A DNA stretch of 64,000 nt. It comes from Mycolicibacter virginiensis. Its GTDB lineage: Bacteria; Actinomycetota; Actinomycetes; Mycobacteriales; Mycobacteriaceae. The notes beneath the pieces are model-generated. The model did no database searches. It saw nothing but the letters and a program-made list of their open reading frames with translations, and had not been told where the DNA came from. The translations under genes and the position numbers were made by a program. Position 1 is the stretch's first letter, and every line of letters starts with the position of its first letter. Location of the stretch: assembly GCF_022374935.2 (NCBI RefSeq), contig NZ_CP092430.2, positions 2,728,001 to 2,792,000 on the forward strand, read 5' to 3'. This document shows positions 6,743-64,000 of the stretch, one piece after another.

Positions 6743-6826
6743 TATCTATCGCTTCCCGCCGTCTCGTCCATTTAGACGGCACTACAGTACCGGGCTGCCG
6801 ATCGCATTCTCAGCAGGCAAGGATCC

Positions 6827-18226: not shown

Positions 18227-18240
18227 TGAGGCGCCCCGCT

Positions 18241-18540
18241 TCAGCCAGCAGCCGCGGCGTTGACAGCCTCGGTGAGGGCGTAAGCGTTCGCGTTGCTACC
18301 CAAAGTGGCCACGATCTGCTGGTGCACCGCCGCCGCCTGGGCACTGACCTCCTGGAACAGGGATCCATGGACCGAGAACTGGGCAGCGGTCATCGCCGAC
18401 ACCAAGTCCGCGGCAGGCGCGGTCACACCAGTGGTAGGAGCAGCAGCGGCGGTGACCCCCGCGGTCATCGAGTCGCCGATTCCGGAAAGGCTTCCGGCGG
18501 CCGCCGTCAGAATCTCTGGCTGAGCGGTTACGAACGACAT
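18241..18540 (-). CDS. PE protein (PE domain only)
   Basis: A 99-residue protein consisting solely of the PE domain: MSFVTAQPEILTAAAGSLSG at the start, two helices, and a C-terminal NAYALTEAVNAAAAG. The ATG at 18540 is chosen because AGGAGGA lies 4 bp upstream; an earlier in-frame ATG at 18564 has no such site. It is the first gene of the PE-PPE-EsxM-EsxN cassette and the expected partner of the PPE encoded next. Confidence 0.92.
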   Translation of the reverse strand: MSFVTAQPEILTAAAGSLSGIGDSMTAGVTAAAAPTTGVTAPAADLVSAMTAAQFSVHGSLFQEVSAQAAAVHQQIVATLGSNANAYALTEAVNAAAAG

Positions 18541-35731: not shown

Positions 35732-35913
35732 GACGACAACCGATCTTTCGACTTGTTCGAATGATTCTTTGGCACCGGACCACCTGAGGCGTGGCGGGCC
35801 ACTGTGATGACAACAGTGTGCCACTGTGTCCGGCGACTGCGCGTCGGTACCGCCGTCCACCCCCTAGGCTGTCGGTGACAGGGGGGTCAGGATTCTTGAC
35901 GGAAGGTTGGCCG

Positions 35914-36234
35914 ATGAAGAACTTTGCGTGTGGTCTGGCGACCGCAGTTGCCCTGGCAGCGGCTCCCCTGGCGCTGGCAGCGATCGCCATGCCCGCCATC
36001 GGATCGGCAGAGCCGCTGGCCTGCCCGGGCGGTCAGTACTGGGAGCCCAGCACCAACACCTGCATGCCGCTCGGACAGGGACCGACCCCGCTGGCCTGTC
36101 CGGGCGGTCAGTACTGGGAGCCCAGCACCAACACCTGCATGCCGCTCGGACAGGGACCGACCCCGCTGGACTGCCCGCCCGGCGAATATTGGCAGCCCTT
36201 CGGCAACGCCTGCCGGCCACTCGGCCAGATCTGA
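35914..36234 (+). CDS. Small secreted Cys-rich repeat protein
   Basis: 106 residues. A signal peptide (to about residue 32, ending IGSAEP) is followed by two 25-residue repeats and a partial third. The two full copies are identical in protein and differ by one base in 75 bp. Each unit starts CPGGQYWEPSTNTCMPL and contains two Cys and one Trp; the third reads CPPGEYWQPFGNACRPL. The CPxGxYW...C pattern is reminiscent of chitin-binding or other small disulfide-linked carbohydrate modules, but I cannot assign a family. It lies 33 bp before gabT on the same strand. Confidence 0.75.
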   Translation: MKNFACGLATAVALAAAPLALAAIAMPAIGSAEPLACPGGQYWEPSTNTCMPLGQGPTPLACPGGQYWEPSTNTCMPLGQGPTPLDCPPGEYWQPFGNACRPLGQI

Positions 36235-47823: not shown

Positions 47824-48822
47824 TCAGCCCACGATGGCGTCGGCCGGCGAACGTCGGGCGGTGCTGCTGGGCCACCGGAGCCGTGTCAGCCAGTCGCGGG
47901 CCACGACGGCATGGCCGTCCAAGCGCTGCACCGACGACGGGTGCAAGGCCGCCAGCGACGAGCGTTGGACTCCTGGTTGCGGACTCAGTCCGGGCAGCGG
48001 TCCACCGGCGCCGGCTTGGGCTCCGGTGCGGAATGCGGCCGCGAACGCCAGCGTCTGGTCGTCGCCGGCGCCGGCAAGCTCCAGCGCTGTCCAGGTTTCA
48101 GGCGCCGGGTAGGCCCAGACCTTCGCGAGCAGGTCCGGCAGGTCGTGCCCGGGGGTAAGCCGGTATGCGGCAAGGTGATCGCCACTTTCCTGCACAATCC
48201 CGTGCCAGGTCTCGCGGGAGCCTGCGGAGTCCAGACGCGGGACATCGTCGGGCTCGACGGCGCTGGCCGCCCAACCGGATTCCCGGAGGTGATCGGCGAG
48301 TCGACGTGCCACGACCGCAGCGGTCTTGTCCAAGGGGATCTCTGCGGAACGTGCTTGCAGCGCAGCGAGATTGTCGACGGCGGAGAAGGTCAGCCCGATC
48401 CACGTGGTCCGCTCCCGTGCGCCGGCCTGGTCTCCGAAGTCGCGGCTGGTGACCCGGATCGTGTCGGCCCGCAGGCCGTAACGGTCCAGGTAGCGGACGA
48501 TCAGCGGCAGCGGAAGCGCATCGGTGTCTTCCTGCGGCGCCGCGACGTTCAGCAGCGCAGTGACCCGCGGGTCGGTGACCGTCCTGCGGGATCGGCGTTC
48601 CCCGTGCTTGCCGCGGTTGAGCGCGACTCGGCGCCGCAGCAGCGTCGTCACGGGTAACCCACGCCATCGCGTCAATAAGACCGCTACGACGGGGATGCCG
48701 ACGCCCAGCACCCAACGCTCGCGTGCCGCGTGCCAGGGGTAGGCGGCAGCCAGGGCCACCGCAGCGAAAAGCACCACGGCGATTCGGCCGGTACCGGGCC
48801 AGGGTGATCGGTGGGTACTCAC
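47824..48822 (-). CDS. eccE3: ESX-3-type secretion component EccE
   Basis: 332 residues. Two N-terminal membrane helices (about 12-28 and 38-52, RIAVVLFAAVALAAAYPW and VLGVGIPVVAVLL) are followed by a cytoplasmic domain. EccE stabilises the periphery of the type VII membrane complex with EccBCD and MycP. Identity rests on this architecture and on being the last gene after mycP, as in Rv0292. The ATG overlaps the mycP stop by 4 bp. Confidence 0.9.
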   Translation of the reverse strand: MSTHRSPWPGTGRIAVVLFAAVALAAAYPWHAARERWVLGVGIPVVAVLLTRWRGLPVTTLLRRRVALNRGKHGERRSRRTVTDPRVTALLNVAAPQEDTDALPLPLIVRYLDRYGLRADTIRVTSRDFGDQAGARERTTWIGLTFSAVDNLAALQARSAEIPLDKTAAVVARRLADHLRESGWAASAVEPDDVPRLDSAGSRETWHGIVQESGDHLAAYRLTPGHDLPDLLAKVWAYPAPETWTALELAGAGDDQTLAFAAAFRTGAQAGAGGPLPGLSPQPGVQRSSLAALHPSSVQRLDGHAVVARDWLTRLRWPSSTARRSPADAIVG

Positions 48823-50237
48823 AGGGCGGTCTCCTTTCTCCGGCGTGCCGCGATTGCGGCGGCGCCGACGGCCAATCCCAGTGCCGCTGCGCCGCCCAAT
48901 GCGACGAGCTGCGGCGTGTAGTTCTTCGGTTCCGGTTGCGGAGGCGGGGCCACCCGTTTCACCGGCTCCGCGTCCGGGACGGAACCGGCCGGCAGCTGCC
49001 AGGTCAGCGCCGCCACCGGATCGACAGATCCGGCGCCAAGGATGTTGGACGGCGCGCGGGCCGTGTTGTGCGCGGTGGCGCTGAGCCGGTGGATCACCTG
49101 CGCCGCGCTCAGTTCCGGATACCGGCTCCGAACCAGCGCCGCGACGCCGGCCACGTAGCCCGATGCGTAACCGGTACCGCTGAGCGGCACCAGTTTCTGC
49201 CTAGCACCGGGCAGCGCGTTGGCGAGGCCGCCGTCATCGCGGTTGCTCACCGACACGATGTTCTCGCCAGGTGCGGCGAGACCGACCCACGGCCCGGCCG
49301 TGGTGAACTTGGAGGGCTGGCCGTCGGGTGCCAGCGATGCCACCGACAGCACATAAGGCTGCCAGGACGACGGGATCGACACCGATGCGACGGTCCCCCA
49401 ACTGCGCGGGTCGTCCGGTCGGCTCAGGTCGGTCAGCGGGTTGGACTGGCAACCGGTTCCACCGCCAGCCGACCCGGTGGCACCGCTGTCGCCGGCCGCG
49501 GCGATCACCACGGCGTCCTTGTCGACCGCCGCATAGCGAATGGCCGCGCCGAGTTCGGACTGGTCGACGTTGCGGTCGGCGGGCACGCAATGCACGGCAG
49601 AGACTGCTATCACCCGTGCGCCGAGATCCGCGGCGTGCACGATCGCCCGACTCAGGGCCGTCACAGTGAAGGCCGCCTGCGCCAACTCCGGATCACCGTT
49701 GAAGGCTGCCGGTGTGATCTTTGCGGACGTGGCGCGCAGCGACAGCAGCCGGGCCGCCGGCGCGACGCCGCTGAAACCGTCGTCGCCGGGCTGGCCGGCG
49801 ATGAGCCCGGCGATCAGTGTTCCGTGCCCGTCGCAGTCGGTAAGGCCGTCGGTGGTGCCGATGTAGTCGCCACCGGCCTCAACGGCAGGAAGGCGCGGGC
49901 CGGGCCGCACCCCGGTGTCGATGACGGCCACGGTTTGGGCGTCGCCGCGAGCGAACTGCCACGCAGCGGCTAGATCGATTTGACGTTGCGCGGCATCCGG
50001 TTCCTTGAGATCGGTGCCGGCGATGATCTCGGTGGTGCCGCACTCGCTGTTCTGCCGTGTGGCTTGCACCGGCCCCGGAGTGCCGCTGGGCCTTACGACG
50101 CCCAGGTCTACGGTCGGCGGGGTGATCGCCAAGACCGGCGGGGATGTCCACAGGGCCGCGACCAGGACCCCGGCGGCGCCGCCGAGCCGGATCGCCCGGG
50201 AGTACCCGGGCGCCGGGCCGATTCGGGAACGGCTCAT
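48819..50237 (-). CDS. mycP3: Mycosin MycP of ESX-3 type, apparently without catalytic serine
   Basis: 472 residues: signal peptide, subtilisin-like domain, Pro-rich linker (APPPQPEPKN) and C-terminal membrane helix with RRRKETAL tail. It closely follows M. tuberculosis MycP3 (Rv0291). The catalytic Asp (AVIDTGV, codon 49917-49919) and His (DCDGHGTL, codon 49824-49826) are present. The nucleophile motif reads SGTGYASGYVAGVAAL where MycP3 has SGTSYAAG, so Ser is Gly (codon GGT, 49170-49172). The oxyanion-hole Asn is Asp (AAAGDSG, codon 49488-49490). The reading frame is otherwise intact, so it is likely a structural pseudoprotease; mycosins are known to be needed for complex stability apart from proteolysis. 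Confidence 0.93.
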   Translation of the reverse strand: MSRSRIGPAPGYSRAIRLGGAAGVLVAALWTSPPVLAITPPTVDLGVVRPSGTPGPVQATRQNSECGTTEIIAGTDLKEPDAAQRQIDLAAAWQFARGDAQTVAVIDTGVRPGPRLPAVEAGGDYIGTTDGLTDCDGHGTLIAGLIAGQPGDDGFSGVAPAARLLSLRATSAKITPAAFNGDPELAQAAFTVTALSRAIVHAADLGARVIAVSAVHCVPADRNVDQSELGAAIRYAAVDKDAVVIAAAGDSGATGSAGGGTGCQSNPLTDLSRPDDPRSWGTVASVSIPSSWQPYVLSVASLAPDGQPSKFTTAGPWVGLAAPGENIVSVSNRDDGGLANALPGARQKLVPLSGTGYASGYVAGVAALVRSRYPELSAAQVIHRLSATAHNTARAPSNILGAGSVDPVAALTWQLPAGSVPDAEPVKRVAPPPQPEPKNYTPQLVALGGAAALGLAVGAAAIAARRRKETAL

Positions 50238-51625
50238 CGATCGAGGACCCAGGCGAAAATGCCGACCAGGTAGGCGATTACCGGTATCAGCGATGCGTCC
50301 AGACCGGAGGCAACGAAACCGACCAGCCGGCGCACCGGCAACGAATAGCTGTGCGGATCGGCGATGGCCGGAATCACGGAGGCCAGCACCCATACCGACA
50401 CCAAGCTGGCCAGGACCCCCACCGCGATCAACACAGCAAGGTAGCGGCCCGTTGCACCGTAGAGCACCAGCAGCGCGACCGTCAGCAGGTACGGCTGGGC
50501 CAGCAGCCAGGCTTTGCTGGCGGCGGAATCCCACACGCGTGCGCGCAGTGCGGCCGCGACCGCATTGGCCACCACCACGTACCACCCCCACGCCGGAACC
50601 GTTTCGGGTTGCGCGGCAATGGCAAACGAGCCAAGAGCGCCGATCAGCACGCCACCGGCGATGAATCCGGTTTGGTACTTCTCGCTGGCTTGTACGCGAC
50701 GGGGCAGGTCCTCCAACACCCGTAGTGACGGAGCTGCCGGAGTCGGGTCTCCGGGCGCGGGGATGACCGGCAGCGGCAGCCGTGCCCACAGCGCAGACAG
50801 TTGCGGTGCCGAGACAGTGAGCAACAGGGCCAGCACCACCAGGCCACCGCCGATGCTACGCAGCGGCAGCGGCCACAGTGCCTCGACCGCCGCCGCCAGC
50901 GCAACGCCGCCACCGACCACGGTTGTTGCCGTGAAGAATCCGAGGTCGCGGCGCGAGCCGATAACGCGAATCAACGACCACGCAGTAATGCCGGCGGCTC
51001 CCAGGGTCAGCTGTGCCGGACCGAACTGCCCCGGTACCGCCAAGGCCAGTGCGGAGGCGATCGGCGCCAGCGCGGCGATGGACAACGCTCCGTCATACGG
51101 TCGGCGTGCGAAGAGCGCGGCGAGTACGGCAAGTACGGCGATGGTGCCGGCCGCCAACAGCCCTGCCGGCGCGCCGGTGACCACCCGATAGGTGACGGCT
51201 AAACCCGTTGCCGTCAAGATCAATCCGACAGCGGCCGCGAGCGCTCCGGTCCCGATGTGCCGCGGGCCCCAAGGCTTGCGCCGGGAGGCCGAGAAGATCA
51301 CCGCGGCATCCGCGATGTCTTCGACGATGCCGGGCGCCGAGGGACCGGCAGGCACCGGCTGCAGGGCCAGCAGGTCCCCGTCGACCACGCCGACGGTGTC
51401 CAGGCTGGCATCCAGGCTGAACGGTGCGCCGCCGATCGGCGCAAGGCTGAGCCGGTCGGTGTTGCCGGCACCATCGTTAGCCTCATCGGGAGCGGTCGGC
51501 ACGACCAAGCGCTGGACGGTGGGCAGGATTTCGCGTAGCGGTAGGTCCGCGGGCAGAGCAATCTCCGTCAGCCGACTCTCGGCCAGGACAGCTATCCGCA
51601 CGATCGGTATCACAGCGTTGGCCAT
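50234..51625 (-). CDS. eccD3: ESX-3-type secretion component EccD
   Basis: About 463 residues. A cytoplasmic ubiquitin-like N-terminal domain (about 1-95, starting MANAVIPIVRIAVLAESRLT) is followed by eleven hydrophobic helices with almost no loops. EccD forms the dimeric membrane barrel of the type VII core. The ATG at 51625 is preferred over the TTG just before it. It overlaps mycP by 4 bp. In M. tuberculosis, PE5-PPE4-esxG-esxH-espG3 lies between eccC3 and eccD3; here only 40 bp separate them. Confidence 0.94.
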   Translation of the reverse strand: MANAVIPIVRIAVLAESRLTEIALPADLPLREILPTVQRLVVPTAPDEANDGAGNTDRLSLAPIGGAPFSLDASLDTVGVVDGDLLALQPVPAGPSAPGIVEDIADAAVIFSASRRKPWGPRHIGTGALAAAVGLILTATGLAVTYRVVTGAPAGLLAAGTIAVLAVLAALFARRPYDGALSIAALAPIASALALAVPGQFGPAQLTLGAAGITAWSLIRVIGSRRDLGFFTATTVVGGGVALAAAVEALWPLPLRSIGGGLVVLALLLTVSAPQLSALWARLPLPVIPAPGDPTPAAPSLRVLEDLPRRVQASEKYQTGFIAGGVLIGALGSFAIAAQPETVPAWGWYVVVANAVAAALRARVWDSAASKAWLLAQPYLLTVALLVLYGATGRYLAVLIAVGVLASLVSVWVLASVIPAIADPHSYSLPVRRLVGFVASGLDASLIPVIAYLVGIFAWVLDR

Positions 51626-51665
51626 CAAGGGGTCCTCAGCTTCAGAAGGGACATGGGTTCTTCTC

Positions 51666-54600
51666 CTAGCGCGTCAAGGTTTGGCTGAATTGCGGGTTGA
51701 CTAGTTGTAGGTAGGTGGGTTCGTCGTTGTCGGCCAGTAGGATTGCGCGTCCTGCGGGTAGGCGTGCGAAGCGTTGGCCGCGGATTTTGCCGCTGTCGGC
51801 GGGGTTGCCGGAGAGCATGAGGGTGGTGGCTTGCAGGTCGTTGAGGCGCCGCAGTAGCGGGTTGGTCATCAACGCGTGTGCCGAGCCGGTAGCGCGTGCG
51901 GTGACGATGACCCGCAACCCCAGATCGCCTGCTTGTGAGAGCAATTCGATGAGGGTGGTCCACGGCCGTTGCCCGGCATAGGGGCCGGTCAGGGCTGGGG
52001 TGTCGGGGATGGCATCGACATCGTCGATGATCAGGTAGTGGGTGTGGCCTTCGTAGCTCCAGGCGGCCAGGTCCGCCGCCGACAATCCTGCGGGGGGCCG
52101 CCGGGATCCGATCAACGCTGATAGGCCGAGCATGGCTGGGATGACCCGATCCACGTTCGCGGTGTACTCATTGTCGGCGAACAAGGGTTCATCCACGAGG
52201 TGCAGGCGCCGATCCAGCACGGTGAATGCCACCTGATCGGCGGTGGAGTGCTCCCGCACGGTGCGGATGATGTGGCGCAGCAAGGTCGTTTTACCGGACT
52301 TGGCGTCGCCGAGTACCAGCAGCAGTGGGTTGGTGGTGAAGTCCACTGGCACTGGTGCCAGGTCTTCTTCGCGCACCCCGACCACGACATGATCGACCGC
52401 GGGATAGAGCACCCCGACTTCTTCGGGTGCCAGGTTGGTCGGCAACAACCGCACCGGGGGTGCGGCCAATCCGGGATGGCGGGCGTTGATCGCCTCGATC
52501 TGCCCCAAATCGGGTGCGGCGATCAGGAAGTGCTCGGCGGCCATCGTCAGACCACGACCGGGCTGATTGGCCGGCACCGCTTCGGCCGGACGGGTCAACG
52601 CCCCAGCCACCCGGACGTTGCTGTCGCGGGCATCATGCAGCTTGAGCTCCAGGCGCAAACCGAGGCCATCGCGCATGGCCAACGGCACTTCCAGCCAGCT
52701 CGGCGTCGTCACGACCACATGGATGCCGTAGGCCAGGCCGACGTTGACCAGTTCGGTGACCTTGGCCAACAGCGGATTGCGGGTGTTGAACGCATCGGTG
52801 TTGTCGCGGCTGAAGGCATACAGGTTGTCGATGACCAAAAACACTTCACCGTAGCCGTCGTTGAGCGAGCCGATGCTGCCATCACGGAACGCTTCGCGCT
52901 GCTGCCGTGCCGTCAACAACTGCTCGAGTTCGCCGAAGGTGCGGCGGATCTTCTCGGGCTCCAGGCCGGAGGCGACACTGCCCACATGGGCCAGACCGTC
53001 GAGGGCCCGCAACTGCCCGCCGCCGTAATCGAGGCAGTAGAACGTGACCTCCCGCGGCGAATGCAGACTCGCCGCCGACAGAATGAACGTCTGCAATGCG
53101 GTGGTTTTACCGGACTTGGGGCCACCGTGGATGAGCAGGTTCCCCGACGCGGAGCGGGCATCGAAGACCAGCGGATCCCGGCGCATCTCAAAGGGTTTGT
53201 CGATCTGCCCCAGCGGCCACCGCAACGCCCGCTCGGCGATCCCCGCGGAAGCCAATGTCGCCGCCAGCGGGATCGGCTCATCCAGGGGCGGCAACCACAA
53301 TGCGGGGGCTTGCGGGCCGTAGTTGGCCAACTGATCGCCGATGGTGGCGATCAGCTTGCGCGGTGGACCCACCACCTCCTCATCGATCTCACCCACGAGG
53401 GTGGTTTCGTGCCCGGCGTCGACCGCGCCGGCGGTGAACAGTTTCGGTTCGGGCAGTGCATGCATCACCACCGCCCGCGATTGCCGTGGCGGGTCATAAA
53501 TCCCATCGACATAGGTGGAGCGGAATTTGATCGGTGCCGCCCCCGGGGCGGGCACCAAAAAGCCCTCACCTTTGTGTTCTTTGCCCGCCTCGATGTGATA
53601 GGCGTCCTCGACCCCGATGATCTGGCGAGACACACTCGGCGAAGCGACTTTCAGCCCGATCCGATACGAGGTGTTCTTGTCGATGTCTTTGATCTTGCCG
53701 ACATCCAACGTCTGCGAGGCAAACAAGATATGGATACGAAACGAGCGGCCCTTGCGCGCCACATAATCAAACAATTCGGCGTACTCGGGGTGATCGGCCA
53801 ACATCAACGTGAACTCGTCAGCGACGATGAACAACGTCGGGATCGGCGCCAAATCATGGCCGGCAGCGATCGCGGCCTCATACTCGGTCACCGAGTTAAA
53901 GGCACTGCCCTGAACCCGGCGGCCCGCCTCCCGCAGCAACAACTCCCGCCGCGCCACCTCACCACGCAACGTGTCGGCGAACCGATCCGCCAAGGATTTC
54001 TTCTCGGCCATGTTCGAGATCACCGCAACGACCTGCGGGAAATGCCGGAAAATGTCCGCGCCGGCCTCGCCCTTGAAGTCGGCGTAGATCACGATCAACC
54101 GATCCGCCGAATGCGTGGTCAACAACGACAACAAAATCGCCATCAACGTCTGCGATTTGCCCGAGCCGGTCATCCCGATCATCAACCCGTGCGGACCCAT
54201 CCCGCCCTCGGCCTCATCCTTGAGATCGAACAACAACGGCTCCCCGGTCGCGGTCACCCCAATGGGCACGCGTAGTTCTTCCTCGCGGGTGCGCGGTGCC
54301 CACAATGCCGGCACATCCAGGCGTGAGGCATCCGCAATACCCAACAACGTGGTGAAGGTGGCACCCCGGGTGCCCGCCGACCGCAACCCGGCATGCGTCG
54401 GATTGGAATCCCACCGCGACAACCGCCGCGCCACATGCGCCGCCTCCGGGGCCCCCAACGCATCCGCGGCATCGACATAACGCGCCCAGCCGCCCGACTG
54501 CCACCGATCAATCGCCGCCCCACCGGCAGTGATCCGCAAAATCGGGCGCTCCGGATCGCCATACTGCTCCCGGTTCGGCGCCGCCGTCGACCGCACGATG

Positions 54601-55628
54601 ACCGTCACCCCGGCACGCGCAGCCCCCAACACCGAGGCCGCCACATCAAACTCAGGGTCATCAATGATCACCAACACATGCCGACCCGACTCACCGGTCT
54701 CACCGGTAAACGGCGGGCGGCCCGCGAGCACCGGGGCCAACAAGCCCGCCAGTTCCTCACCACTGGCCGCCAAATAGCGGGCCGGGCCCACCCCATCAAC
54801 AGCGCCGGCGATATCGGTGTGCGGCAACCACTTCAACCACGACCACGCCGGCGTCTCCAGCTCCGGCGACGCCAACGCCACCCCCAACACCGTCGGGTCA
54901 TGCCACGTCACCGCTTGGGCCACCCACGCCCGCACCGCCGCCCGCACCTCATCAGCGGCGTGCTCGCCCTCACCGAGCACCGTGACCCTTGACAGCTTCG
55001 TCACATCCATACCCACCGGCACATCACGCACCGTGCGCTGGGTATCCAACAAACTCCGCAACGCCGAATGCGAGACCGGCTCCAAATCAATCTCATCAGC
55101 GGTATCGGTGACCCGCACCGCACTAGCCAACCCCACCGCATGCCGGCCCGTGCGTACCACCAAGAAATCCTCATCATGCGGATCGCGTTCCCACTGCCGC
55201 CGCGAACCCGGCACCGCCACCAAATCCACCGGATCCGGATGCGACCACTGCGCGGCCGCCCGCTGCTTAGCCGCCAAGCCGCGAATATTGTCGCGAACCA
55301 CCGACAAATACCGCAGATAATCCGCCCGCTCGGCATCCACCTCAACCGTGCGGGCCTTCTTATCCCCACCCCGATAAATACCGGCCGCAGCCACCAACAA
55401 CGCAAACGGGAAGAACAACATCACCGGAGACACCAACCGCATCCCCGTCGCGACCATGGCAATCACCATGCCCACAATCAAAATCACAATCACCACCGGC
55501 AACGCCCGCTGCAAAAACGACGCCGGAACCAACCGCGGCAACTCCGGCGGCGGCTCAATCGTGATCGTGCCCCGATCAACAGGCGGCACCGGAAGCCGAC
55601 GACGGGCCTCAAAAATCAAACGACTCAT
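51666..55628 (-). CDS. eccC3: ESX-3-type FtsK/SpoIIIE motor ATPase EccC
   Basis: 1320 residues, unsplit, as in EccC3 (Rv0284) and unlike split EccC of ESX-1. Two membrane helices lie near residues 37-80. Three P-loop ATPase domains follow, with Walker A motifs [18 protein letters not shown] and GDAKSGKTT and partner acidic strands [19 protein letters not shown] and YLIIDDVDA. It recruits Esx/PE/PPE substrates and powers export. The start [16 protein letters not shown] and much of the body are close to Rv0284. Synonymous codon choice changes along the gene (see findings). ATGA overlap with eccB. Confidence 0.96.
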
Positions 55629-57229
55629 CGCGACTCTCCAACACTAGAAACGCCACCCAACTCACCAGCAACACGACGCCCCGGACGCGAATCCGGCGCC
55701 AACCCGTCATGCGCCAACAACGCATCCGCCCGCGACAACACAGGACCAACAGCAAACTGCGACAACACCGACCACGGAATCGGCACAGCCGGCTCACTCA
55801 AACCCAAAGCAGAAATCGTGTCCGCATCGCTCTCGCTACTGATTCCGTAGCGCACACCGGTGTCCGAGATCCAAAACAACGATCCAGCCGGCGACGATGC
55901 TGGGCTTTGCCCCACGCTTTGTGCGACATAGCCACTGCCCGGCGCCAGCGCGACACGTGCCGCGGTGCCACCCACTCCCGCGCCCACCAAATCCAAAGTG
56001 CGCACACCCTCACGCAACGGCAACGTCGAACCCGACAACAACGTCAACGAACTCGTCGACGCACCAACAGGCTTACTCCAATGCGCACACGTCACCGGCG
56101 CCGACACCGCATCAACCACCTTCACCGGCTGCTCCGGAAAACGCGACACATCCAACTGCCGCGAAACCGGCAACCGCGCAACATCATCAGCACCCAACAC
56201 CGGCGGCCGATCCAAACCCTGCGAATCACTGTTACGCAACACCGCCGCCAACACCCCAGAAATCGGCTGCAACCCATCGGATAACACCGCGTAATAGCGC
56301 AAGGCGGTGTCGGAACTGTCGTCGATCTCATGCGCCACGACCACCGAGCCGATGGAAACCGGCACCGGCAACGCGAACGGCAGCGGGCTGCCGGCATCGG
56401 GGATCACCGGCGCCACCAGTGCCGGCGCCTCCGGAATCACATTGAACAGTCCAGGAGCGATCGGCCGAGGCTTGGATGCACCGGCATCCAAGCCCAGCGC
56501 GGCGGTGACGGCCCGATCGTCGAGGTCGATCCGGCTGCGCTTGCCGTTCCACAACAGCCAAGCACCGGCACCGTTGTCGACCAGCACCGCCTGCTGCGTT
56601 CCCAAGGCGTCAGCGCGACTGCCGTCGGTGTCCAGCCGCCCCGCGATGACCGTCACGCCCGTGGCGCTGCCGGACACCGCGTCGCACACCGTCCAGTTCG
56701 CATCGGCGTCTGCGCTTTGCACCAACCGCTCCGGCGCTCCCGGAATACCCAGCAGGTTGCCACGCGGGAAGTTGTCCAACACGGCAGCTCTCACTGCCGT
56801 GGGGTTCACCGGACGACCAGCGACCAGCCGCGCAGAGGTCAGGTTCAGCACGGGGTGCAGCTCATCTCCGACCCGCACATACAGTGCCGACGTGGACCGG
56901 TCCGCCAACACGGGATCGTTGCCGGCGGATCCACCCGGTCGGATCAAAGACAGCGCAAAGCTTCCGACCACTCCGGTGGCCAACAGGACCACCCCCATCA
57001 ACACCGAACGGGACTGGGTGCGCAGCGGCTCCACGAGCATCCGCGTGTCGTGCAGGGCCAGAGCCGAGGCAATCCGCCGCACCAGGAATCGCCAACCACT
57101 GACCTGATGCTTGGTGATAAAACCGCGCCGGTACTCGACCCGGTCGGGATTTTCGTTGACCGGGGTTCGCGACGCGAACGAGCGCCGCCCGTCTTCCGCC
57201 AGATCGGACCGGTCCGCATGTGCGCTCAT
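55625..57229 (-). CDS. eccB3: ESX-3-type secretion component EccB
   Basis: 534 residues. Cytoplasmic N-terminus, one membrane helix (about 75-95), and a large extracytoplasmic domain with repeated beta segments and two cysteines ([12 protein letters not shown] and APVTCAHWS). This is the EccB layout of an elongated domain with R1-R4 repeats. It starts within the ATGA overlap with eccA and ends in an ATGA overlap with eccC, so the three are translationally coupled. The length is near the 538 of Rv0283. Confidence 0.94.
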
Positions 57230-59085
57230 ACCTTGGCCTCCAAGCCCAGGCCACGCAGCAACGGCGCCACCGAGTTACGAACATCTTCGGCAGTAATGGT
57301 CATGAGCTCCTCATCAGTGAATGCCTCGGTGCCGGCCTGTTCGGAATGATCGAGCCGGAATTCGCGCTCCTCCTCGGAGCGTTCGACGAGGTTTCGCACG
57401 AACCGGCCGTTGCCGGCGATGTCCAGGCTGCGCCGTTCGACACCATTGGCATCGGGGTGCGACGCCGCGGCCAGCTGACCGAACAGCGACTGCAGGTCTT
57501 CTTGCGCACTCGGTTCAAAGACGCTATCCCGGTGCTCGGCCATCACAGTGGCGATCTCGACCAACTCGCCCGCCGTGTAGGACGGGAAGTCGATGCTGCG
57601 GGAAAAGCGTGACCGCAGACCCTCGTTGGTATCCAGGAACCGGTCCAGGTCGGCCCGGTAACCCGCGATGATCACCACCAGCCGGTCGCGGTCGTTCTCC
57701 ATCCTCGCCAGCAGGGTGTCGATGGCGATCAGACCGAAGTCGTTCTTGGCGCCGGTAGCCACCAGGGCGTAGGCCTCATCGAGAAACAGCACACCGTCGA
57801 GGGCACTGTCGATCACCGCATTGGTCTTGGCCTCGGTCTCACCGATGTGCTGACCGATCAGGTCGGCACGGTGCACCTCACGCACATTCTCCTTCTTCAA
57901 CAATCCCAGGCCGCAGTAGATCTTGGCCACCACACGGGCGATGGTGGTCTTACCCGTCCCGGGCGGCCCGGCGAAGACCAAGTGATGGGCGCGCTGTGCC
58001 ACGGCCAGACCGTGCTGCTCGCGCCGGATGGCCATAGCGACCGAACTTTTCAGCCGCTGCACCTGATCCTTGACCTCGTCAAGCCCGATGAACTCGCCGA
58101 GTTCACGCTCCGCCTCGGCCAGCAACTCCGCCTTGCGCTCATGCGCGCCAGGATCGATGAAGTCGGATTCGTTTGGTTCGGTGCCGGGGTCCCACGGGTC
58201 GGTCCGGGCCGCGATCCGGTCCGCGGTGGTCGTGATGATCCCGAAGCTGTTGTCCAGCAAGGCCTGCTGAATCTGCTCGTTCTCCGGGTTGGCGGCGTAG
58301 AGGTCTTGCAAAACCTCAGCCGCGGTCTCCTCATCATCCTGCGCACGAAGAACCAATCCCTTGGCCAAGGCCCCGTCGGTGGCCGCGGCCGCGATCGGCC
58401 CGTCCGGCTCCTCCAGGTACGACAACGCCGGGGCATACATACCCAGCCTCGCAAGCGCACTGCCCAGGGCGATCTTGGCGGCGTGGGCGAATAAGTCGTC
58501 CAACTCCGGGTCGTTGACGATCGGAGTCAACAGCTTCACCACATCCGACCAGCGCTCGGCGCGATAGTGGATCACCGTGGCGACCCAGCGGGCATCACGG
58601 AAACCCGGTCGGCGCTCCGCGATCTCGGTGACAAGTCGGTACGCCTCGCCATAGCGGCCGGCCGCGGTCAGCGCGCTGGCATAGGCCAGCTGGAAATCGT
58701 CGGCATCGGTGGCGCGAAACTGCAGGTACAGGCCAGAGTCGTAGTGGAAGCCCAGCGCACCGTGCTGCAGGTCGAGTTGCCGCTGCAGAGCACCCAGCGT
58801 CAGCTCGGAGCGCCAGACCGCCTCCAATACCCGTGCCGAGGTATCGCCGGCCGCGGCCAGTCCCAGCCACGCATCGCATTGATCGTGGGCGACACGGGTC
58901 AGCGCGGCGAAGCCGGCGCGGGCCGCGGCCAGGTCGGCGGGCCGTTTCCGACCGTGGACCGCGATACCCAGCGCTCGACTGCAGGTGGCGAACCGGCTGA
59001 CGATGTCGGCATCCACCTTGGTTGTGCGAGTACGCGCCTCCAGCACGCCCACGTCACGGTTATTCATCCTCGAATCACTTCCCAC
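57226..59085 (-). CDS. eccA3: ESX-3-type AAA+ ATPase EccA
   Basis: 619 residues (Rv0282: 631). The N-terminal half (to about 300) is a TPR-like domain. The C-terminal CbxX/CfqX-type AAA+ domain has Walker [16 protein letters not shown] and Walker B VLFLDEAYALVATG, and the arginine-rich RFVRNLVERSEEEREFR. EccA acts in the cytosol on PPE/EspG/Esx substrates. The start may be the GTG at 59085 or the ATG at 59067. It follows the dioxygenase gene after 32 bp. Confidence 0.95.
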   Translation of the reverse strand: MGSDSRMNNRDVGVLEARTRTTKVDADIVSRFATCSRALGIAVHGRKRPADLAAARAGFAALTRVAHDQCDAWLGLAAAGDTSARVLEAVWRSELTLGALQRQLDLQHGALGFHYDSGLYLQFRATDADDFQLAYASALTAAGRYGEAYRLVTEIAERRPGFRDARWVATVIHYRAERWSDVVKLLTPIVNDPELDDLFAHAAKIALGSALARLGMYAPALSYLEEPDGPIAAAATDGALAKGLVLRAQDDEETAAEVLQDLYAANPENEQIQQALLDNSFGIITTTADRIAARTDPWDPGTEPNESDFIDPGAHERKAELLAEAERELGEFIGLDEVKDQVQRLKSSVAMAIRREQHGLAVAQRAHHLVFAGPPGTGKTTIARVVAKIYCGLGLLKKENVREVHRADLIGQHIGETEAKTNAVIDSALDGVLFLDEAYALVATGAKNDFGLIAIDTLLARMENDRDRLVVIIAGYRADLDRFLDTNEGLRSRFSRSIDFPSYTAGELVEIATVMAEHRDSVFEPSAQEDLQSLFGQLAAASHPDANGVERRSLDIAGNGRFVRNLVERSEEEREFRLDHSEQAGTEAFTDEELMTITAEDVRNSVAPLLRGLGLEAKV

Positions 59086-59117
59086 TCAAAGCTGTACGGC
59101 CCGAAACGATTGGTGGC

Positions 59118-60083
59118 TTACGCCACCGCTCGAGGCTCTCCGATGACGGAGTACGCCGAAGCGTCGCCCTGGAGGACGCGACTGCGCTCACCGTGAACGC
59201 TGACCGGAATGTCGCCGGCAAGGGTGATCCGGTGCAACCGCCGGTGCGCCTGACCGAAATCGGAGACTCCGTAGTGCTGGGTGGACCGGTTGTCCCAGAT
59301 CGCCAGGTCACCCAGCTGCCAGTTCCACCGGATGGTGTTCTCCGGTCGAGTGATCCGCTCCTGGAAGAGCTGGAACAGCACACGCGACTCGGAGTGCTTG
59401 ACATCCGCGATTCGTTGCACGAAGTTGCCCAACAGCAGAGAGCGTTCTCCGCTCTCGGGGTGCACCCGCACCACAGGGTGCTGCGTCTCGTACGTGGTGG
59501 AGTTGAACGTCTGGATGTACTGCTGAAACTCCTCGGATTGCAGAAGGTCTGCGTACTTCTCAAGCTGCTTGGAGTCCGTCAGGTCGAGCTGCGTGTAATC
59601 GAAGGCGTTGCTGTGCACCGCCCAGAGCTCGTCCGCCAACCGGGCCAGCGGATTGGGCAGCTGCTCGTAGGCGGTAACCGTGTTGGCCCACAGCGTGGTT
59701 CCACCGTAGGGCGGCAGCTCTACGGCCCGAAGCAGTGACGCCTTGGGTGCCCGATCCACGAACGTGACGTCGGTGTGCCAGCTGTTCGCGGCGGTGCCGC
59801 CAAAGGAGTCGATCGGAAGAATGGCGCCCTCGCCCGGCAACAGCGGGTGGGGTGCCGTCGGCGTCCCCAGCAGTTGAGCGAACTCGAACTGGCTGACATC
59901 GTCCAAATGGTGCTGCCCACGGAAGAAGATGACCTTATGCGCGACCAAAGCGTCGTTGATCGCGGTGACGGTCTCGTTGTCCAAGTCACCGCCCAACTGG
60001 ACTCCGTCGATCCGGGCGCCGATGTATTCGCCGAGCTTCACCACATCCAAGTCGGAACGGGTGGACAACGATTGGCTGGACAT
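59118..60083 (-). CDS. TauD-family Fe(II)/2-oxoglutarate dioxygenase
   Basis: 321 residues of the TauD/TfdA family. The iron ligands are the HxD of [10 protein letters not shown] and the distal His of [11 protein letters not shown]; the following Arg binds 2-oxoglutarate. Relatives include taurine dioxygenase and the M. tuberculosis alkylsulfatase Rv3406, which release sulfite or sulfate, but other substrates are known. AAGGAGAAA precedes the ATG at 60083. It is on the ESX strand, between esxH and eccA3, with 141 bp before and 32 bp after, and is not part of any ESX-3 locus I know. Confidence 0.92.
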
Positions 60084-60224
60084 GAGATTTTCTCCTTTGT
60101 TGATCTAGCTAGTTATTGAGCGGTCCAAGCCGGCGTGCGGATGGGGAAATCCAACACGCCAAGCTGTGAATTTGTTTTCGGCAGAGTTCTTTTCGGTTGA
60201 CGGGATCTTCGGACGGGCACTACG

Positions 60225-60512
60225 TCAGCCCCAGCGGGCGGCCTCCGCCGTGTCGCGGGCGAGCATCCCCAAGGTGTTGGACTCATGCGTGGTGGCCATC
60301 GCGTGGTAGGCCCGCACCAACTCCTCCATCGCCTGATTCCACTGCGCCTGCCACGCCTGATAGGTCAGTCCGGTGTCGCCCTGCCACGCCGCGTGCAACG
60401 CCGCCTGCTCACTGGCGATATCGGCACCCACGGCCTGCAATGTGGCTGCATGCCCATTCATCTCCGCGGCATGGGCCAGCATCGCCGGGTAGTTGTACAG
60501 AATCTGTGACAT
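60225..60512 (-). CDS. esxH: ESX-3 WXG100 substrate EsxH (TB10.4-like)
   Basis: 95 residues from the ATG at 60512: [20 protein letters not shown], then SAWQGD-type turn ([20 protein letters not shown]) with the WxG, ending [12 protein letters not shown]. It is plainly orthologous to M. tuberculosis EsxH (Rv0288). It forms a heterodimer with EsxG that is exported by ESX-3 and is needed for siderophore-based iron and for zinc homeostasis. A GTG one codon earlier could also start. It follows esxG after 17 bp. Confidence 0.96.
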
Positions 60513-60529
60513 CACAAAATCCTTTCTCG

Positions 60530-60823
60530 TCAGAATCCGGTGTAGGTGCTCGCCGCGGCGGCGTCGGCCGCCACATAGGTGCTGCCCGCATCCGCCAAAT
60601 TGACCTGCGCCATATCCAGCAACGCGTTCACCCGCGCCGCCAACGCGACAAACCGGGCGTGTGACCCCTGAAAGGCCACGGCTGACTCACCCACGTGAAA
60701 CGCCTGCGCCGACAACGCCGTCTGCTCCGCCTGCGCCATCGTCGACCGCATCAAGGCCGCCTTGGCGCCAAACGCCGACTCTGAGGCCACCAACTGCGGA
60801 ATGTGTGCATCCAACAAACTCAT
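60530..60823 (-). CDS. esxG: ESX-3 WXG100 substrate EsxG
   Basis: 97 residues starting [20 protein letters not shown] and ending [14 protein letters not shown], matching M. tuberculosis EsxG (Rv0287) throughout. It has FQG in place of the WxG turn, similar to FQA in Rv0287. GGGAG precedes the ATG. It starts 45 bp after the stop of the PPE gene. The first codons and this upstream gap are duplicated at 62.5 kb. Confidence 0.96.
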
Positions 60824-60868
60824 CGCTTATCTCCCTTTCCACATCGCTTGCTTTGTGTTCACCGTCGA

Positions 60869-62467
60869 TCAGCTTTCTGCGTTGCGATCCATTCCTTCGG
60901 TCGACTGACCGGTCCAGCTGGCCGGCAGCAGCGGCTCGCTGGGAACGCCGTTGAACGAGTCGCCGGCCAAGGTGGCCAATCCGGCTTCCCGCAGACCGTC
61001 TTTGACGACGTTTCCGCCGAACCCGAGCCCACCGGCGCTCCCCTGCGAAGCGATTGGGCCACCACCCAGTTCGGGGCCCAACTCGGGATCCATTTCGATG
61101 TTCATATCGGCGTATTGCTCGCCGCGCTCGCGAATCTGCGTCCGCCGGCGGCGCCGTGACCGCGACGCACGTCGCGCGGCCGACTCCTGGGCCGCGGAGT
61201 CCGATGCCGGGCTCTTCGCCTGTGAGCCGGTGCCGCTTCCGGTCCTGTTGTTCGAGTTGAATCCGGATCCAGGACCGCCGCCGAATCCGATCATGTATGG
61301 AAAGGCGACTGCCGGCGCGGCAGCGGGCGCAGGCGGTGCCGGCGGTGACGCACCGCCGGGGACGCTGGCAGGCGGGGCGGCCGCGGGGGATCCGGTGGCC
61401 GGCACCGACCCGGCCACGCTCACCACGTGCACGTTCGACCCGGTCCCTGCCGACGCGGCGGGCGCCGCGACGACGTCAGGAACCGCGTCGAGAACAAGAG
61501 GCAGCTCGAACGGCTTCGGCAGGGCTGCCAGGGCCGCAAGCGCGCTCATGCTGGCAAAGGGCGCGGCAAGACTGGAGGAGATCGCGGCGCCCAGTTCGAT
61601 GGCGGTCAGCGGGTGCGCAAGCAACCACGGTGCGAGAGTCACCGGGTTGAGAAGCAGCAGGCCCACTTCCGGGTTCGTCGAGAGATTGGCGACGATGTAG
61701 TCGATCTCCTGGATCTGAGTCAACGTGTTCTTGAGCCAGTACGCCACCGTCAACGGGTTGGTGTAGGAGCTATAGGGCAGTCCGTCGATGGTGCCGGTCA
61801 CCGGGTCCCAGCGCAGGCCCAAGGACGAATCGATGAAGTCCGCGATGCCTTCGAGGAATGGGTCGGTCCAGGTGTGGGCGGGACCCCACGGGTCGTCCGA
61901 GGTGTCCGTGGGCGCCGCCAGCGCCTCTGACTTAAGGATCGCCGGTGCCACGGCGGTCGGCGGGATTGAGGCGACAGCCAAGCTCGCGACCGCCTGGTAG
62001 GTGCTCATGGTGGTAGCGGCCTGGACCCACATCCGCGCGTAGTCGGCCTCATTGATCGCAATCGGAACGGTGTTGACCCCGAAGAAGTTCGTCGCCAGCA
62101 GTATCCCGTGAACGGCGTGATTGGCAGCCAGTTCCGCCATCGTCGGCATCGCTGCCAACGCGGTGATGTAGGCACCCGCCACGGCCTCATGCTGGGCGGC
62201 CGCTGCGGCACTGTCGGCGCTCGCCTGCGTCAGCCACGCCAGGTAGGGCGCGTTGGCGGCAACATAGGTTTCAGCGCTCGGTCCTTGCCATGCCCCGGCC
62301 TGCACCGCTGCCAGCACCTCACTGAGTTCCACCGCCGCCGAGGAGTACTCGGCGCTCAGCGTTTTCCATGTCCCGGCCGCAGCCAATACCGAGCCCGAGC
62401 CCGGCCCGCTGGTCAACATTGTTGAATGGACCTCGGGCGACAACGCCATCCATGCCGGCGCGGTCAC
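60869..62467 (-). CDS. PPE4-like PPE protein, PPW subfamily (downstream copy)
   Basis: About 532 residues from the GTG at 62467 (MTAPAWMALSPEVHS); a GTG at 62476 would add three residues. The start at 62467 matches PPE4 of M. tuberculosis and overlaps the stop of the esxG remnant (GTGA). The PPE motif itself reads SPE. The domain contains LLATNFFGVNTVPIAINEAD. The C-terminal part has IGFGGGPGSGFN and EPLLPASWTG, the PPW-subfamily signatures. It is expected to pair with a PE protein and EspG3, neither of which is in view. Confidence 0.93.
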   Translation of the reverse strand: MTAPAWMALSPEVHSTMLTSGPGSGSVLAAAGTWKTLSAEYSSAAVELSEVLAAVQAGAWQGPSAETYVAANAPYLAWLTQASADSAAAAAQHEAVAGAYITALAAMPTMAELAANHAVHGILLATNFFGVNTVPIAINEADYARMWVQAATTMSTYQAVASLAVASIPPTAVAPAILKSEALAAPTDTSDDPWGPAHTWTDPFLEGIADFIDSSLGLRWDPVTGTIDGLPYSSYTNPLTVAYWLKNTLTQIQEIDYIVANLSTNPEVGLLLLNPVTLAPWLLAHPLTAIELGAAISSSLAAPFASMSALAALAALPKPFELPLVLDAVPDVVAAPAASAGTGSNVHVVSVAGSVPATGSPAAAPPASVPGGASPPAPPAPAAAPAVAFPYMIGFGGGPGSGFNSNNRTGSGTGSQAKSPASDSAAQESAARRASRSRRRRRTQIRERGEQYADMNIEMDPELGPELGGGPIASQGSAGGLGFGGNVVKDGLREAGLATLAGDSFNGVPSEPLLPASWTGQSTEGMDRNAES

Positions 62468-62505
62468 GCCAGCCACCCCGGTTCAGGTGCATCCAACAAA
62501 CTCAC
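62464..62505 (-). pseudogene. Remnant of the 5' end of esxG at a tandem-duplication junction
   Basis: A 13-codon open frame from the GTG at 62505 to the TGA at 62464 begins MSLLDA, identical to the start of EsxG, with the same GGGAG ribosome-binding site upstream. The 45-bp stretch between it and the upstream PPE stop aligns without gaps to the 45-bp gap before esxG (34 of 45 bases identical by eye). It ends at the start codon of the next PPE gene, so it may now work as a leader that couples translation. Confidence 0.8.
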
Positions 62506-62550
62506 GGTCTATCTCCCTATCGACATCGATTGCCTTGCGTTGAGCGACGA

Positions 62551-64000
62551 TCACTGATCCCGGTGGTGATCCGCCCCATCGCTCGACTGCCCGGTCCAGG
62601 TGCTCGGCATCAACGGTTCAATCGGGAGACCACTGAACGAATCACCGGTTAGAGTGGTCAAACCCGCTTCTTGCACAGCGTGTTTGACAGCGCCGCCTCC
62701 GAACCCGAGCTGTCCCGCGCTGCCCTGGGAGGCAGTCGGGCTGTCGTCCGGCGATGCCCATTCGGGATCGACATTCATGTCGGCGAACTGGTCGCCGTGA
62801 TCGTGCAACTGCGTCCGCCGGCGCCGGCGCTTCCGGGCTTGCCGGCGCGCCGCGGATTCTTCTGCCGCCGAATCCGATGCCGGGCTCTTCGCGCGTGCGC
62901 CGGTGCCGGTGCCGGTCCGGTTGGTCGAATCGAAGCCGATCCCAGGACCGCCACCGAATCCGATCATGTAGGGGAATGCGATTCCCGCTCCCGCGACTGC
63001 CGCCGGCGCCGGCGCTGGGGCCCCTGCACCGGCCGAAGCGCTCGCCGGCACCCCGGCCCCAGGGGGTCCTGCGGCGGGCACCGACCCGGCAACGCTCACC
63101 AGATGCGGGTTGGAGACCGTTGCGACCGAGTCAGGAGCCGAAGCGACGTCGGGAACCGAGTCGACCAGGATGGGTGCGCCGGACGGCCACGGCAGGGCTG
63201 CCAGTGCCGCGAAAGCGCTCAGACTCGCCAAGGGCGCGGTCAGGGTGGAGGCTATCGCGGCACCCAGCTCGATGGCGACCAGTGGATGCGCGATCAAGAA
63301 CGTCGAGAGAGTGGCCGGGTTGAGAAGCAGCAGAGCGACTTCCGGGTGAGCGCCCACGTTCGCGATGACGTAGTCGACCTCTTGGATGAGGGTCACGGTG
63401 TTCTTGACCCAATACAGCACAGTCAGTGGGCTGGTGTACGCCGAGTAGGGCAGCCCGTCGATGGTGCCGGCGCCGGGTTCCCAGTTGATCCCCACGGATC
63501 GCAGCACCTGCGCGATGCCTTCCAACAAGGGGTCGGTCCAGGTGTGCGCAGGCCCCCACGGGTCCGCCGGATCCGACGTCTCCGCCGGCGCCGCCGACTT
63601 GAGGATCGTCGGCGCCACGGGGGTCTCCGGGGTTGACGCCGCGGCCGAGCCCGCGACCGCCTCGTAGGTGCTCATCGTGGTGGCGGCCTGGACCCACATC
63701 CGCGCGTAGTCGGCCTCGTTGATCGCAATGGGGACGGTGTTGATTCCGAAGAAGTTCGTCGCCAGCAATACCCCGTGAACCGTGTGATTTGTGGTCAGTT
63801 CAGCCAGTGTGGGCATCGCCGCCAACGCGGCGGTGTAGGCGGTAGCCACGGCCTGATGCTGGGCCGCCACCACGGCACTGTTGGCGCTGGCCTGCGTCAG
63901 CCATGCCAGGTAGGGCGTATTGGCCGCCGCGTACGACTCGGCGCTCGGTCCTTGCCAGGCTCCGGCCGCTACCGCCCCCAGCACCTCGCTGAGTTCCTCG
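62551..64000 (-). CDS. PPE4-like PPE protein, PPW subfamily (upstream copy, runs off the right edge)
   Basis: At least 483 residues, in frame to base 64000; the N-terminal start is outside. It aligns over its length with the downstream PPE: QGPSAESYAAANTPYLAWLT, LLATNFFGINTVPIAINEAD, then IGFGGGPGIGFD and EPLMPSTWTGQS at the end. The variable part lies after the PPE domain, in Ala/Pro-rich stretches. It is the older or newer partner of a tandem PPE duplication. A PE gene would be expected just beyond the window. Confidence 0.92.
   Translation of the reverse strand, partial: EELSEVLGAVAAGAWQGPSAESYAAANTPYLAWLTQASANSAVVAAQHQAVATAYTAALAAMPTLAELTTNHTVHGVLLATNFFGINTVPIAINEADYARMWVQAATTMSTYEAVAGSAAASTPETPVAPTILKSAAPAETSDPADPWGPAHTWTDPLLEGIAQVLRSVGINWEPGAGTIDGLPYSAYTSPLTVLYWVKNTVTLIQEVDYVIANVGAHPEVALLLLNPATLSTFLIAHPLVAIELGAAIASTLTAPLASLSAFAALAALPWPSGAPILVDSVPDVASAPDSVATVSNPHLVSVAGSVPAAGPPGAGVPASASAGAGAPAPAPAAVAGAGIAFPYMIGFGGGPGIGFDSTNRTGTGTGARAKSPASDSAAEESAARRQARKRRRRRTQLHDHGDQFADMNVDPEWASPDDSPTASQGSAGQLGFGGGAVKHAVQEAGLTTLTGDSFSGLPIEPLMPSTWTGQSSDGADHHRDQ

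What the first reader, a model, noticed from the sequence alone, without database searches (positions are those of the whole stretch)
48819..50237. Mycosin with Ser-to-Gly at the nucleophile and Asn-to-Asp at the oxyanion hole
The motif expected as GTS reads GTG (codon GGT at 49170-49172) and the oxyanion GN reads GD (codon 49488-49490), while Asp (49917-49919) and His (49824-49826) of the triad remain and the frame is intact. A subtilase lacking its serine should not cleave peptides. Mycosins have a structural role separable from proteolysis, so this could be a naturally evolved scaffold-only MycP or an early sign of decay of the locus.
Basis: partly seen in the sequence, partly recalled or inferred. 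Interest (0 to 1): 0.8.

Follow-up and report, generated by a model that had tools for sequence, protein, structure and literature searches.

The report
Serine-less ESX-3 mycosin, recurrent pseudoprotease
A secretion-system protein that looks like a protein-cutting enzyme has lost the residue that does the cutting, and the same loss has happened again and again in related mycobacteria while the rest of the protein stayed intact, which suggests that here it serves as a structural part and not as a cutter.

Summary
The mycosin at 48819-50237 (-) is an intact 472-aa frame with Gly for the nucleophile Ser and Asp for the oxyanion Asn; the triad Asp and His remain. It belongs to a second ESX-3-type locus in a Mycolicibacter-type genome. 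It is no isolated case: the mycosin of the genome's canonical ESX-3 locus carries the same two changes, and 61 of 211 distinct MycP3-type sequences lack the serine. Parsimony needs 18 changes. Of 124 non-MycP3 mycosins read in 60 genomes, 123 keep Ser; the exception is MycP5-like. Serine-less clades have median dN/dS 0.10-0.26, within the range of intact ones. At 140 positions conserved in intact MycP3, serine-less proteins keep 96% on average; only the Ser and Asn positions fall below 77%. So this is not decay. Best reading: MycP3 repeatedly becomes a pseudoprotease kept for building the ESX-3 membrane complex, as shown by others for MycP1 and MycP5. In the window's clade the Asp probably came before the loss of Ser. 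Inactivity and the scaffold role here are inferred, not measured.

The parts
48819..50237 (-). mycP of the second ESX-3-type locus, 472 aa, serine-less
   Evidence: NCBIfam TIGR03921 T7SS_mycosin 367.5 bits against cut-off 278.75
49170..49172 (-). codon GGT = Gly at the nucleophile position (residue 356)
   Evidence: alignments
49488..49490 (-). codon GAC = Asp at the oxyanion-hole position (residue 250)
   Evidence: alignments
49824..49826 (-). codon CAC = triad His138, retained
49917..49919 (-). codon GAC = triad Asp107, retained
47824..48822 (-). eccE
   Evidence: TIGR03923 203.9 bits, cut-off 108
50234..51628 (-). eccD
   Evidence: TIGR03920 353.7 bits, cut-off 94.95
51666..55628 (-). eccC, 99.2% identical in protein to eccC of the genome's canonical ESX-3 locus
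   Evidence: TIGR03924 and TIGR03925 above cut-off; dS 0.042 to the paralogue
55625..57229 (-). eccB
   Evidence: TIGR03919 540.2 bits, cut-off 154
57226..59085 (-). eccA
   Evidence: TIGR03922 830.6 bits, cut-off 466.65
59118..60083 (-). TauD-type dioxygenase between the esx pair and eccA
   Evidence: NF007104 222.4 bits, below its cut-off of 313: family level only
60225..60515 (-). EsxH-like WXG100 protein (87% to EsxH of the canonical locus)
   Evidence: TIGR03930 55.8 bits, cut-off 44.85
60530..60823 (-). EsxG-like protein (93% to EsxG of the canonical locus)
   Evidence: no NCBIfam match
60869..62476 (-). PPE-type protein
   Evidence: 54% to the PPE of the canonical locus over residues 2-247; no NCBIfam match
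62551..64000 (-). second PPE-type protein, runs out of the window; a PE-like match follows just outside (window-equivalent 64152-64442)

Best explanation
It is the mycosin (MycP) of a second ESX-3-type secretion locus. By descent it is a MycP3, but very probably no longer a serine protease. Shown: the nucleophile is Gly and the oxyanion residue is Asp; the protein is otherwise conserved and under purifying selection; the serine has been lost many times in MycP3 and rarely (1 of 124 read) in other mycosins. Inferred: it is exported, anchored by its C-terminal helix, and serves as the periplasmic cap that holds the EccB ring and the ESX-3 membrane complex together, with no cutting. Also inferred: the Asp at 250 sits opposite His138 and may take up the contact that Ser356 left. 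In this clade the Asp came first and the Ser was lost afterwards, unless Gly reverted to Ser.
For: Lesions. The own canonical MycP3 has the same two changes; the genome's MycP1/MycP5-like and MycP4-like mycosins keep Ser. Of 211 distinct MycP3-type sequences 61 lack Ser (57 Gly, 2 Ala, 2 Asp); 150 have it, of which 5 have lost His; 145 triads are intact. Fitch 18 changes, 20 maximal serine-less clades; 15 independent contrasts on starred branches of a FastTree tree. Control: 111 of 119 pattern matches in 60 genomes encode Ser; all 111 lie inside TIGR03921 mycosin matches, one of them a MycP3; the other 8 are not mycosins. Of 70 mycosin matches that the pattern missed and that had not been read, 20 were read: 6 MycP3-type (over 50% identity), all with Ser, and 14 others, 13 with Ser. 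So Ser is kept in 123 of 124 non-MycP3 against 41 of 48 MycP3 in the same 60 genomes. Selection: mycP dN/dS 0.225, 0.155, 0.161, 0.212 to four serine-less orthologues, 0.164 to the serine-bearing M. arupense copy; serine-less clade medians 0.10-0.26, intact 0.065-0.29. Conservation at 140 positions: mean 0.965; lowest Ser356 0.0 and Asn250 0.21, next 0.77. Context: 16 of 16 serine-less loci examined (15 distinct contigs) have eccD3 and eccE3 on either side, 13 espG3, 11 esxG/esxH. Tree: all 19 rows of this mycosin's clade have Asp250, 3 of them Ser356. Experiments on relatives: active-site mutants of MycP1 and MycP5 still support secretion (PMC5082899, passages); MycP5 caps and stabilises the ESX-5 complex (PMC8131196, passages).
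Against: No activity or secretion was measured, and the scaffold role is shown for MycP1 and MycP5, not MycP3. An M. smegmatis mycP3 deletion had no major growth defect in low iron (PMC6389172, passages), so in some species the whole protein may matter little, although the constraint seen here speaks against that. Serine loss is not exclusive to MycP3: one MycP5-like mycosin (L328, genome G043) has Gly and Asp at the same two places, and 50 non-pattern mycosin matches in the 60 genomes stayed unread. The Ser-Asn association weakens when relatedness is removed: over 15 independent pairs it goes the same way in 6.6, the other way in 0.4 and does not differ in 8.0; median p 0.031, range 0.016-0.289; 13 serine-less sequences keep Asn. 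The structure prediction failed (mean pLDDT 45.9), so geometry is untested.
Confidence: 0.83

Rival explanations
1. The loss is adaptive, not only tolerated: mycosin proteolysis restrains secretion, so protease-off alleles are favoured in ESX-3, for example under iron limitation.
For: A serine-dead MycP1 raises ESX-1 secretion (PMC5082899, passages). The same pair of changes recurs: of 52 non-Asn sequences at residue 250, 50 have Asp, 1 Glu, 1 Thr.
Against: The serine-dead MycP5 did not raise secretion (same paper). The common changes (Ser AGY to Gly GGY, Asn AAY to Asp GAY, Asp GAC to Gly GGC, His CAY to Arg CGY; codons) are single A to G steps, so mutation supply alone favours them. No positive selection was shown: dN/dS is low throughout.
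Confidence: 0.3
2. The locus or gene is decaying.
For: Loss of catalytic residues can be an early step of decay; the locus has no espG of its own within reach of the search.
Against: Intact frames of the ecc genes, dN/dS 0.155-0.225, the same state in a 15-row clade, and gene conversion that keeps eccC alike in both loci.
Confidence: 0.04
3. The protein is still a hydrolase: another residue replaces Ser, or the Asp250-His138 pair does new chemistry.
For: Asp107 and His138 are both kept in 51 of 61 serine-less sequences; Asp250 is acquired with unusual preference.
Against: No column gains Ser, Thr or Cys in most serine-less proteins beyond intact ones; 10 of 61 have lost Asp107 or His138 too; substitutions at the nucleophile vary (Gly, Asp, Ala).
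Confidence: 0.06
4. A dead site kept as a binding groove: the protein still binds the former substrate and acts as a sensor or gate.
For: Positions conserved in intact MycP3 remain conserved outside Ser356 and Asn250.
Against: Bulky groove mutants of MycP1 and MycP5 still secrete (PMC5082899, passages; PMC5156307, part 1 of 2 read). No MycP3 substrate is known to me.
Confidence: 0.15

Closest known systems
MycP3 of M. smegmatis ESX-3 (PDB 4kg7; species recalled, the listing does not give it)
   Same: Best solved-structure match by sequence (E 1.3e-144, residues 38-415).
   Different: 4kg7 has GTS and GN; the window's protein has GTG and GD.
Serine-dead laboratory mutants MycP1 S354A and MycP5 S461A of M. 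marinum (PMC5082899, passages; PMC5156307, part 1 of 2)
   Same: Mycosin without its nucleophile that still supports secretion.
   Different: Those are engineered and belong to ESX-1 and ESX-5; here the change is natural, in ESX-3, and recurrent.
MycP5 of ESX-5 (PDB 7np7; PMC8131196, passages)
   Same: Asp at the oxyanion position (alignment; D362 of M. marinum MycP5 named in PMC5156307); cap and stabiliser of the complex.
   Different: MycP5 keeps Ser, with one serine-less MycP5-like exception seen here (L328).
Proprotein convertase PC2 (recalled, from no call)
   Same: A natural oxyanion Asp in a subtilase.
   Different: PC2 keeps its Ser and is active.

Membership tests
Mycosin (T7SS-associated subtilase, NCBIfam TIGR03921) | match above the curated cut-off | tested here: met
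   367.5 bits against 278.75
Mycosin (T7SS-associated subtilase, NCBIfam TIGR03921) | encoded beside eccD and eccE in an ESX locus | tested here: met
Mycosin (T7SS-associated subtilase, NCBIfam TIGR03921) | complete Asp-His-Ser triad (active serine protease) | tested here: not met
   Ser356 is Gly; so it is filed as a non-peptidase homologue of mycosin
Mycosin (T7SS-associated subtilase, NCBIfam TIGR03921) | signal peptide and C-terminal membrane helix | tested here: inconclusive
   hydrophobic stretches at both ends by eye; helices 13-30 and 441-471 in a low-confidence model; no dedicated predictor run
MycP3 (mycosin of ESX-3) | falls in the MycP3 clade | tested here: met
   nested among MycP3 sequences; its own clade of 19 rows stands on a 100/100 branch
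ESX-3 locus | eccA to eccE, mycP, esxG/esxH, PE/PPE | tested here: met
ESX-3 locus | its own espG3 | tested here: not met
   no espG3 hit at E 1e-4 in the window or in L286, which reaches about 17 kb beyond it
Peptidase family S8 with activity | measured proteolysis | not testable with these tools
   needs protein
Scaffold function in the ESX membrane complex | complex unstable without it | not testable with these tools
   shown for MycP1 and MycP5 only (PMC5082899, PMC8131196, passages)

The most novel reading that the evidence does not exclude
The mycosin of ESX-3 (a system reported essential in M. tuberculosis but not in M. smegmatis) is being turned into a pseudoprotease over and over, about 18 times among the sequences read, by a preferred path that pairs or precedes Ser loss with Asn-to-Asp in the oxyanion hole, because switching the protease off is favourable for ESX-3 secretion or because ESX-3 has no mycosin substrate worth cutting. 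Mycosin would then be primarily a structural cap, with proteolysis a dispensable, system-specific extra.
Probability: 0.4. Interest if true: 0.82.

Novelty: new variant of a known kind. Interest (0 to 1): 0.72.

Why it matters
Whether mycosins need their protease activity has rested, in the papers I saw, on engineered mutants of ESX-1 and ESX-5. Nature has run the experiment repeatedly in ESX-3: this genome has two MycP3-type mycosins, both without the serine, among six S8-family genes in all, and the gene stays under strong constraint. That separates scaffold from protease function genetically, gives natural serine-less and serine-bearing pairs for structural work, and bears on mycosin active sites as inhibitor targets.

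Tried and rejected
Sequencing error: rejected (independent assemblies and the paralogue agree). Decay: rejected. Replacement nucleophile: no column qualifies. Apparent non-Ser sites among the 119 pattern matches: 8, all fetched and read as other proteins or frames. A claim of complete conservation in other mycosins did not survive a wider check: reading 20 of 70 missed mycosin matches turned up one serine-less MycP5-like protein; a second pattern added little. AlphaFold model from 55 close relatives: mean pLDDT 45.9, unusable, so no fold search was made. IQ-TREE on all 214 rows timed out; FastTree and a careful tree of 56 rows were used. Loss of His or Asp together with loss of Ser: no association over independent pairs. 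The simple 2x2 tests (7 of 48 against 1 of 124, p 0.0006; those used the older control) ignore relatedness. Literature: searches in open-licence PMC papers listed nothing that announces a serine-less MycP3; apart from the papers cited with passages I saw listings only, and Wagner 2013 and Solomonson 2013 are not held. PMC4791881 and PMC6986878 were seen in passages.

Full report
What is there. The minus strand from 50237 to 48819 encodes a 472-residue mycosin without internal stops. The triad Asp107 and His138 are present; residue 250, the oxyanion Asn of mycosins, is Asp (GAC, 49490-49488); residue 356, the nucleophile, is Gly (GGT, 49172-49170). The closest solved structure by sequence, 4kg7, has Asn and Ser at these positions.

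Where it lies. NCBIfam names EccA, EccB, EccC (two domains), EccD, mycosin and EccE in one minus-strand run, all above the curated cut-offs, preceded by an EsxG/EsxH-like pair, a TauD-type dioxygenase, two PPE genes and, just outside the window, a PE-like match. The genome (one 4.98-Mb contig) also holds a canonical ESX-3 locus at 303-323 kb with PE, PPE, esxG, esxH, espG3, eccD3, mycP3 and eccE3. The window's locus is a second ESX-3-type locus, with no espG hit in the window or about 17 kb beyond. The named nearest relatives are Mycolicibacter records; the species of the window itself was not determined.

Not alone. The genome's canonical MycP3 has the same two changes, while its MycP1/MycP5-like and MycP4-like mycosins keep Ser (these labels rest on motif and identity). 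I collected mycosin sequences from 277 loci: 7 own-genome stretches, the 30 best loci of a search of 297 genomes of the genus, 80 named loci, 157 further stretches chosen from the lists, and three 20-kb neighbourhoods. Both lists were cut by the tools, so by my count 181 of the 297 genomes are represented; the query was itself serine-less. The 276 sequences gave 223 distinct ones, 214 on the columns used, 211 without the three outgroup mycosins. Of these 211, 61 lack Ser (57 Gly, 2 Ala, 2 Asp) and 150 have it; 145 have an intact triad, and 5 have Ser but have lost His. By codon, His is lost in 12 and Asp107 in 4 of 211. Sixteen serine-less loci were checked for context (15 distinct contigs, since L017 and L042 are the same): all 16 have eccD3 and eccE3 on either side, 13 also espG3, 11 also esxG and esxH (in the others the locus ends first). 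Named examples among them are M. lepraemurium, three M. colombiense strains, M. helveticum, M. kyorinense E861, M. pinniadriaticum and a record titled Mycolicibacterium vulneris.

How many times. On a FastTree tree built without the four catalytic columns, Fitch parsimony needs 18 Ser/non-Ser changes, and serine-less rows form 20 maximal clades; 15 independent contrasting pairs rest on starred branches of such a tree (the tool warns that stars of this method deserve less trust). Parsimony cannot exclude reversals, since Gly GGY and Ser AGY are one step apart. A careful tree of 56 rows shows this mycosin's clade (19 rows) with Asp250 in all and Ser356 in three, two of which are nearly identical. 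So the Asp came first and Ser was lost later, at least twice unless it reverted. The clade of canonical Mycolicibacter MycP3 (11 of 11 rows with Asp250 and Gly356) is separate; it is drawn as sister of the window's clade on a weak fork (88/49), so an Asp in their common ancestor is possible.

Control. A DNA pattern for the nucleophile region of other mycosins (Phe after the nucleophile, any codon at it) gave 119 matches in 60 genomes; 111 encode Ser (65 of them AGY, the codon type of Ser in MycP3), and the other 8 are not mycosins. All 111 lie inside matches to the mycosin model TIGR03921; one is a MycP3. Of the 222 mycosin matches entered were neither in the pattern nor already read; I read 20 of these: 6 are MycP3-type by identity over 50%, all with Ser, and of 14 others 13 have Ser. 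The one without, L328 of genome G043, is MycP5-like and has Gly and Asp at the same two places. In total 123 of 124 non-MycP3 mycosins read keep Ser, against 41 of 48 MycP3-type in the same 60 genomes (7 of 42 without; plus the 6). The other 50 matches were not read. The same mutational step is thus open to both groups but is fixed far more often in MycP3.

Selection. Pairwise dN/dS of mycP against four serine-less orthologues is 0.155-0.225 and 0.164 against the serine-bearing M. arupense copy; eccD gives 0.170-0.238, eccE 0.211-0.251, eccC and eccA less. Over clades of three or more, serine-less medians are 0.10, 0.14, 0.17, 0.17, 0.21 and 0.26; the 15 intact medians range from 0.065 to 0.29. 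At 140 positions at least 97% conserved among intact MycP3, serine-less sequences keep the same residue in 96.5% on average; the exceptions are Ser356 (0%) and Asn250 (21%), then 77% and above, with His138 at 88.5% and Asp107 at 93.4%. The protein is held in shape while its catalytic centre is released.

The Asp. At residue 250, 48 of 61 serine-less sequences differ from Asn (47 Asp, 1 Glu) against 4 of 150 with Ser. With relatedness removed the association is modest (median p 0.031, range 0.016-0.289). MycP5 carries Asp there naturally together with Ser (D362 in PMC5156307, part 1 of 2), and its authors left open whether MycP5 is proteolytically active (PMC5082899, passages). My inference is that Asp at this place makes a poor oxyanion hole and can pair with His138 once Ser is gone; a usable structure was not obtained.

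Mechanism. For MycP1 and MycP5 the protein is needed for secretion and complex stability while serine-dead versions still secrete (PMC5082899, passages); MycP5 caps the EccB5 chamber (PMC8131196, passages). The window's protein fits a natural version of that separation. Shown here: lesions, recurrence, constraint, locus. Inferred: inactivity, capping role, His138-Asp250 contact. Against it stands that an M. smegmatis mycP3 deletion showed no major growth defect in low iron (PMC6389172, passages), so the need for MycP3 differs among species.

Concerted evolution of eccC. The two eccC genes of this genome differ by dS 0.042, although their neighbours differ by 0.54 (eccB) and 1.0 (eccD). In two other genomes with two full-length copies these differ by 0.062 and 0.020, while copies of different genomes among these three differ by 0.42-0.49. 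Of the six genomes searched the other three had only one full-length or split copies and could not be tested. So eccC is homogenised between the two loci in three lineages, while mycP is not (dS 0.82-1.24 between the two copies in five genomes). Both loci are therefore probably in use.

Wider set. Among P0001 and the 120 listed proteins of the first homologue search, 47 of 121 have the intact D-H-N-S set; others include 21 with His to Arg and 17 with Ser to Asp. In the 115 new proteins of the second list 96 are intact. These are the best hits to serine-less queries and no fair sample of frequency.

Verdict. A confirmed observation that opens on something larger: the ESX-3 mycosin is a recurrently evolving pseudoprotease. 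No report of it turned up in the searches, which cover open-licence PMC papers only and were mostly seen as listings.

Noticed in passing
51666-55628 (and L287/L293, L288/L294, L289/L295): eccC is homogenised between the two ESX-3 loci in three genomes (dS 0.02-0.06 within a genome, 0.42-0.49 between genomes), while mycP copies differ by dS 0.8-1.2.
   Followed up: partly
47824-64000: The second ESX-3-type locus has an extra TauD-type dioxygenase and two PPE genes but no espG hit; its PPE proteins may depend on EspG3 of the other locus.
   Followed up: partly
L328 (genome G043, contig 167): A MycP5-like mycosin without the catalytic Ser (Gly) and with Asp at the oxyanion position, in a genome with twelve mycosin-model matches.
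   Followed up: partly
L006 (own MycP5-like mycosin) and PDB 7np7: Asp at the oxyanion position together with an intact Ser; whether MycP5 is an efficient protease is open.
   Followed up: no
P0030-P0121 (homologue list): 17 of 121 listed MycP3-type proteins have Ser to Asp with Asp250, and 21 have His to Arg with Ser kept.
   Followed up: no
L039 (M. icosiumassiliensis), 3600-7200: tblastn matches to eccB and eccC are split with overlaps, which suggests frame breaks or assembly errors there.
   Followed up: no
17714-18519: A PE-like and a PPE-like match elsewhere in the window (39-43% identity).
   Followed up: no
35791-36234: Small open frame with tandem copies of a motif like CPGGQYWEPSTNTCMPLGQGPTPL.
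   Followed up: no
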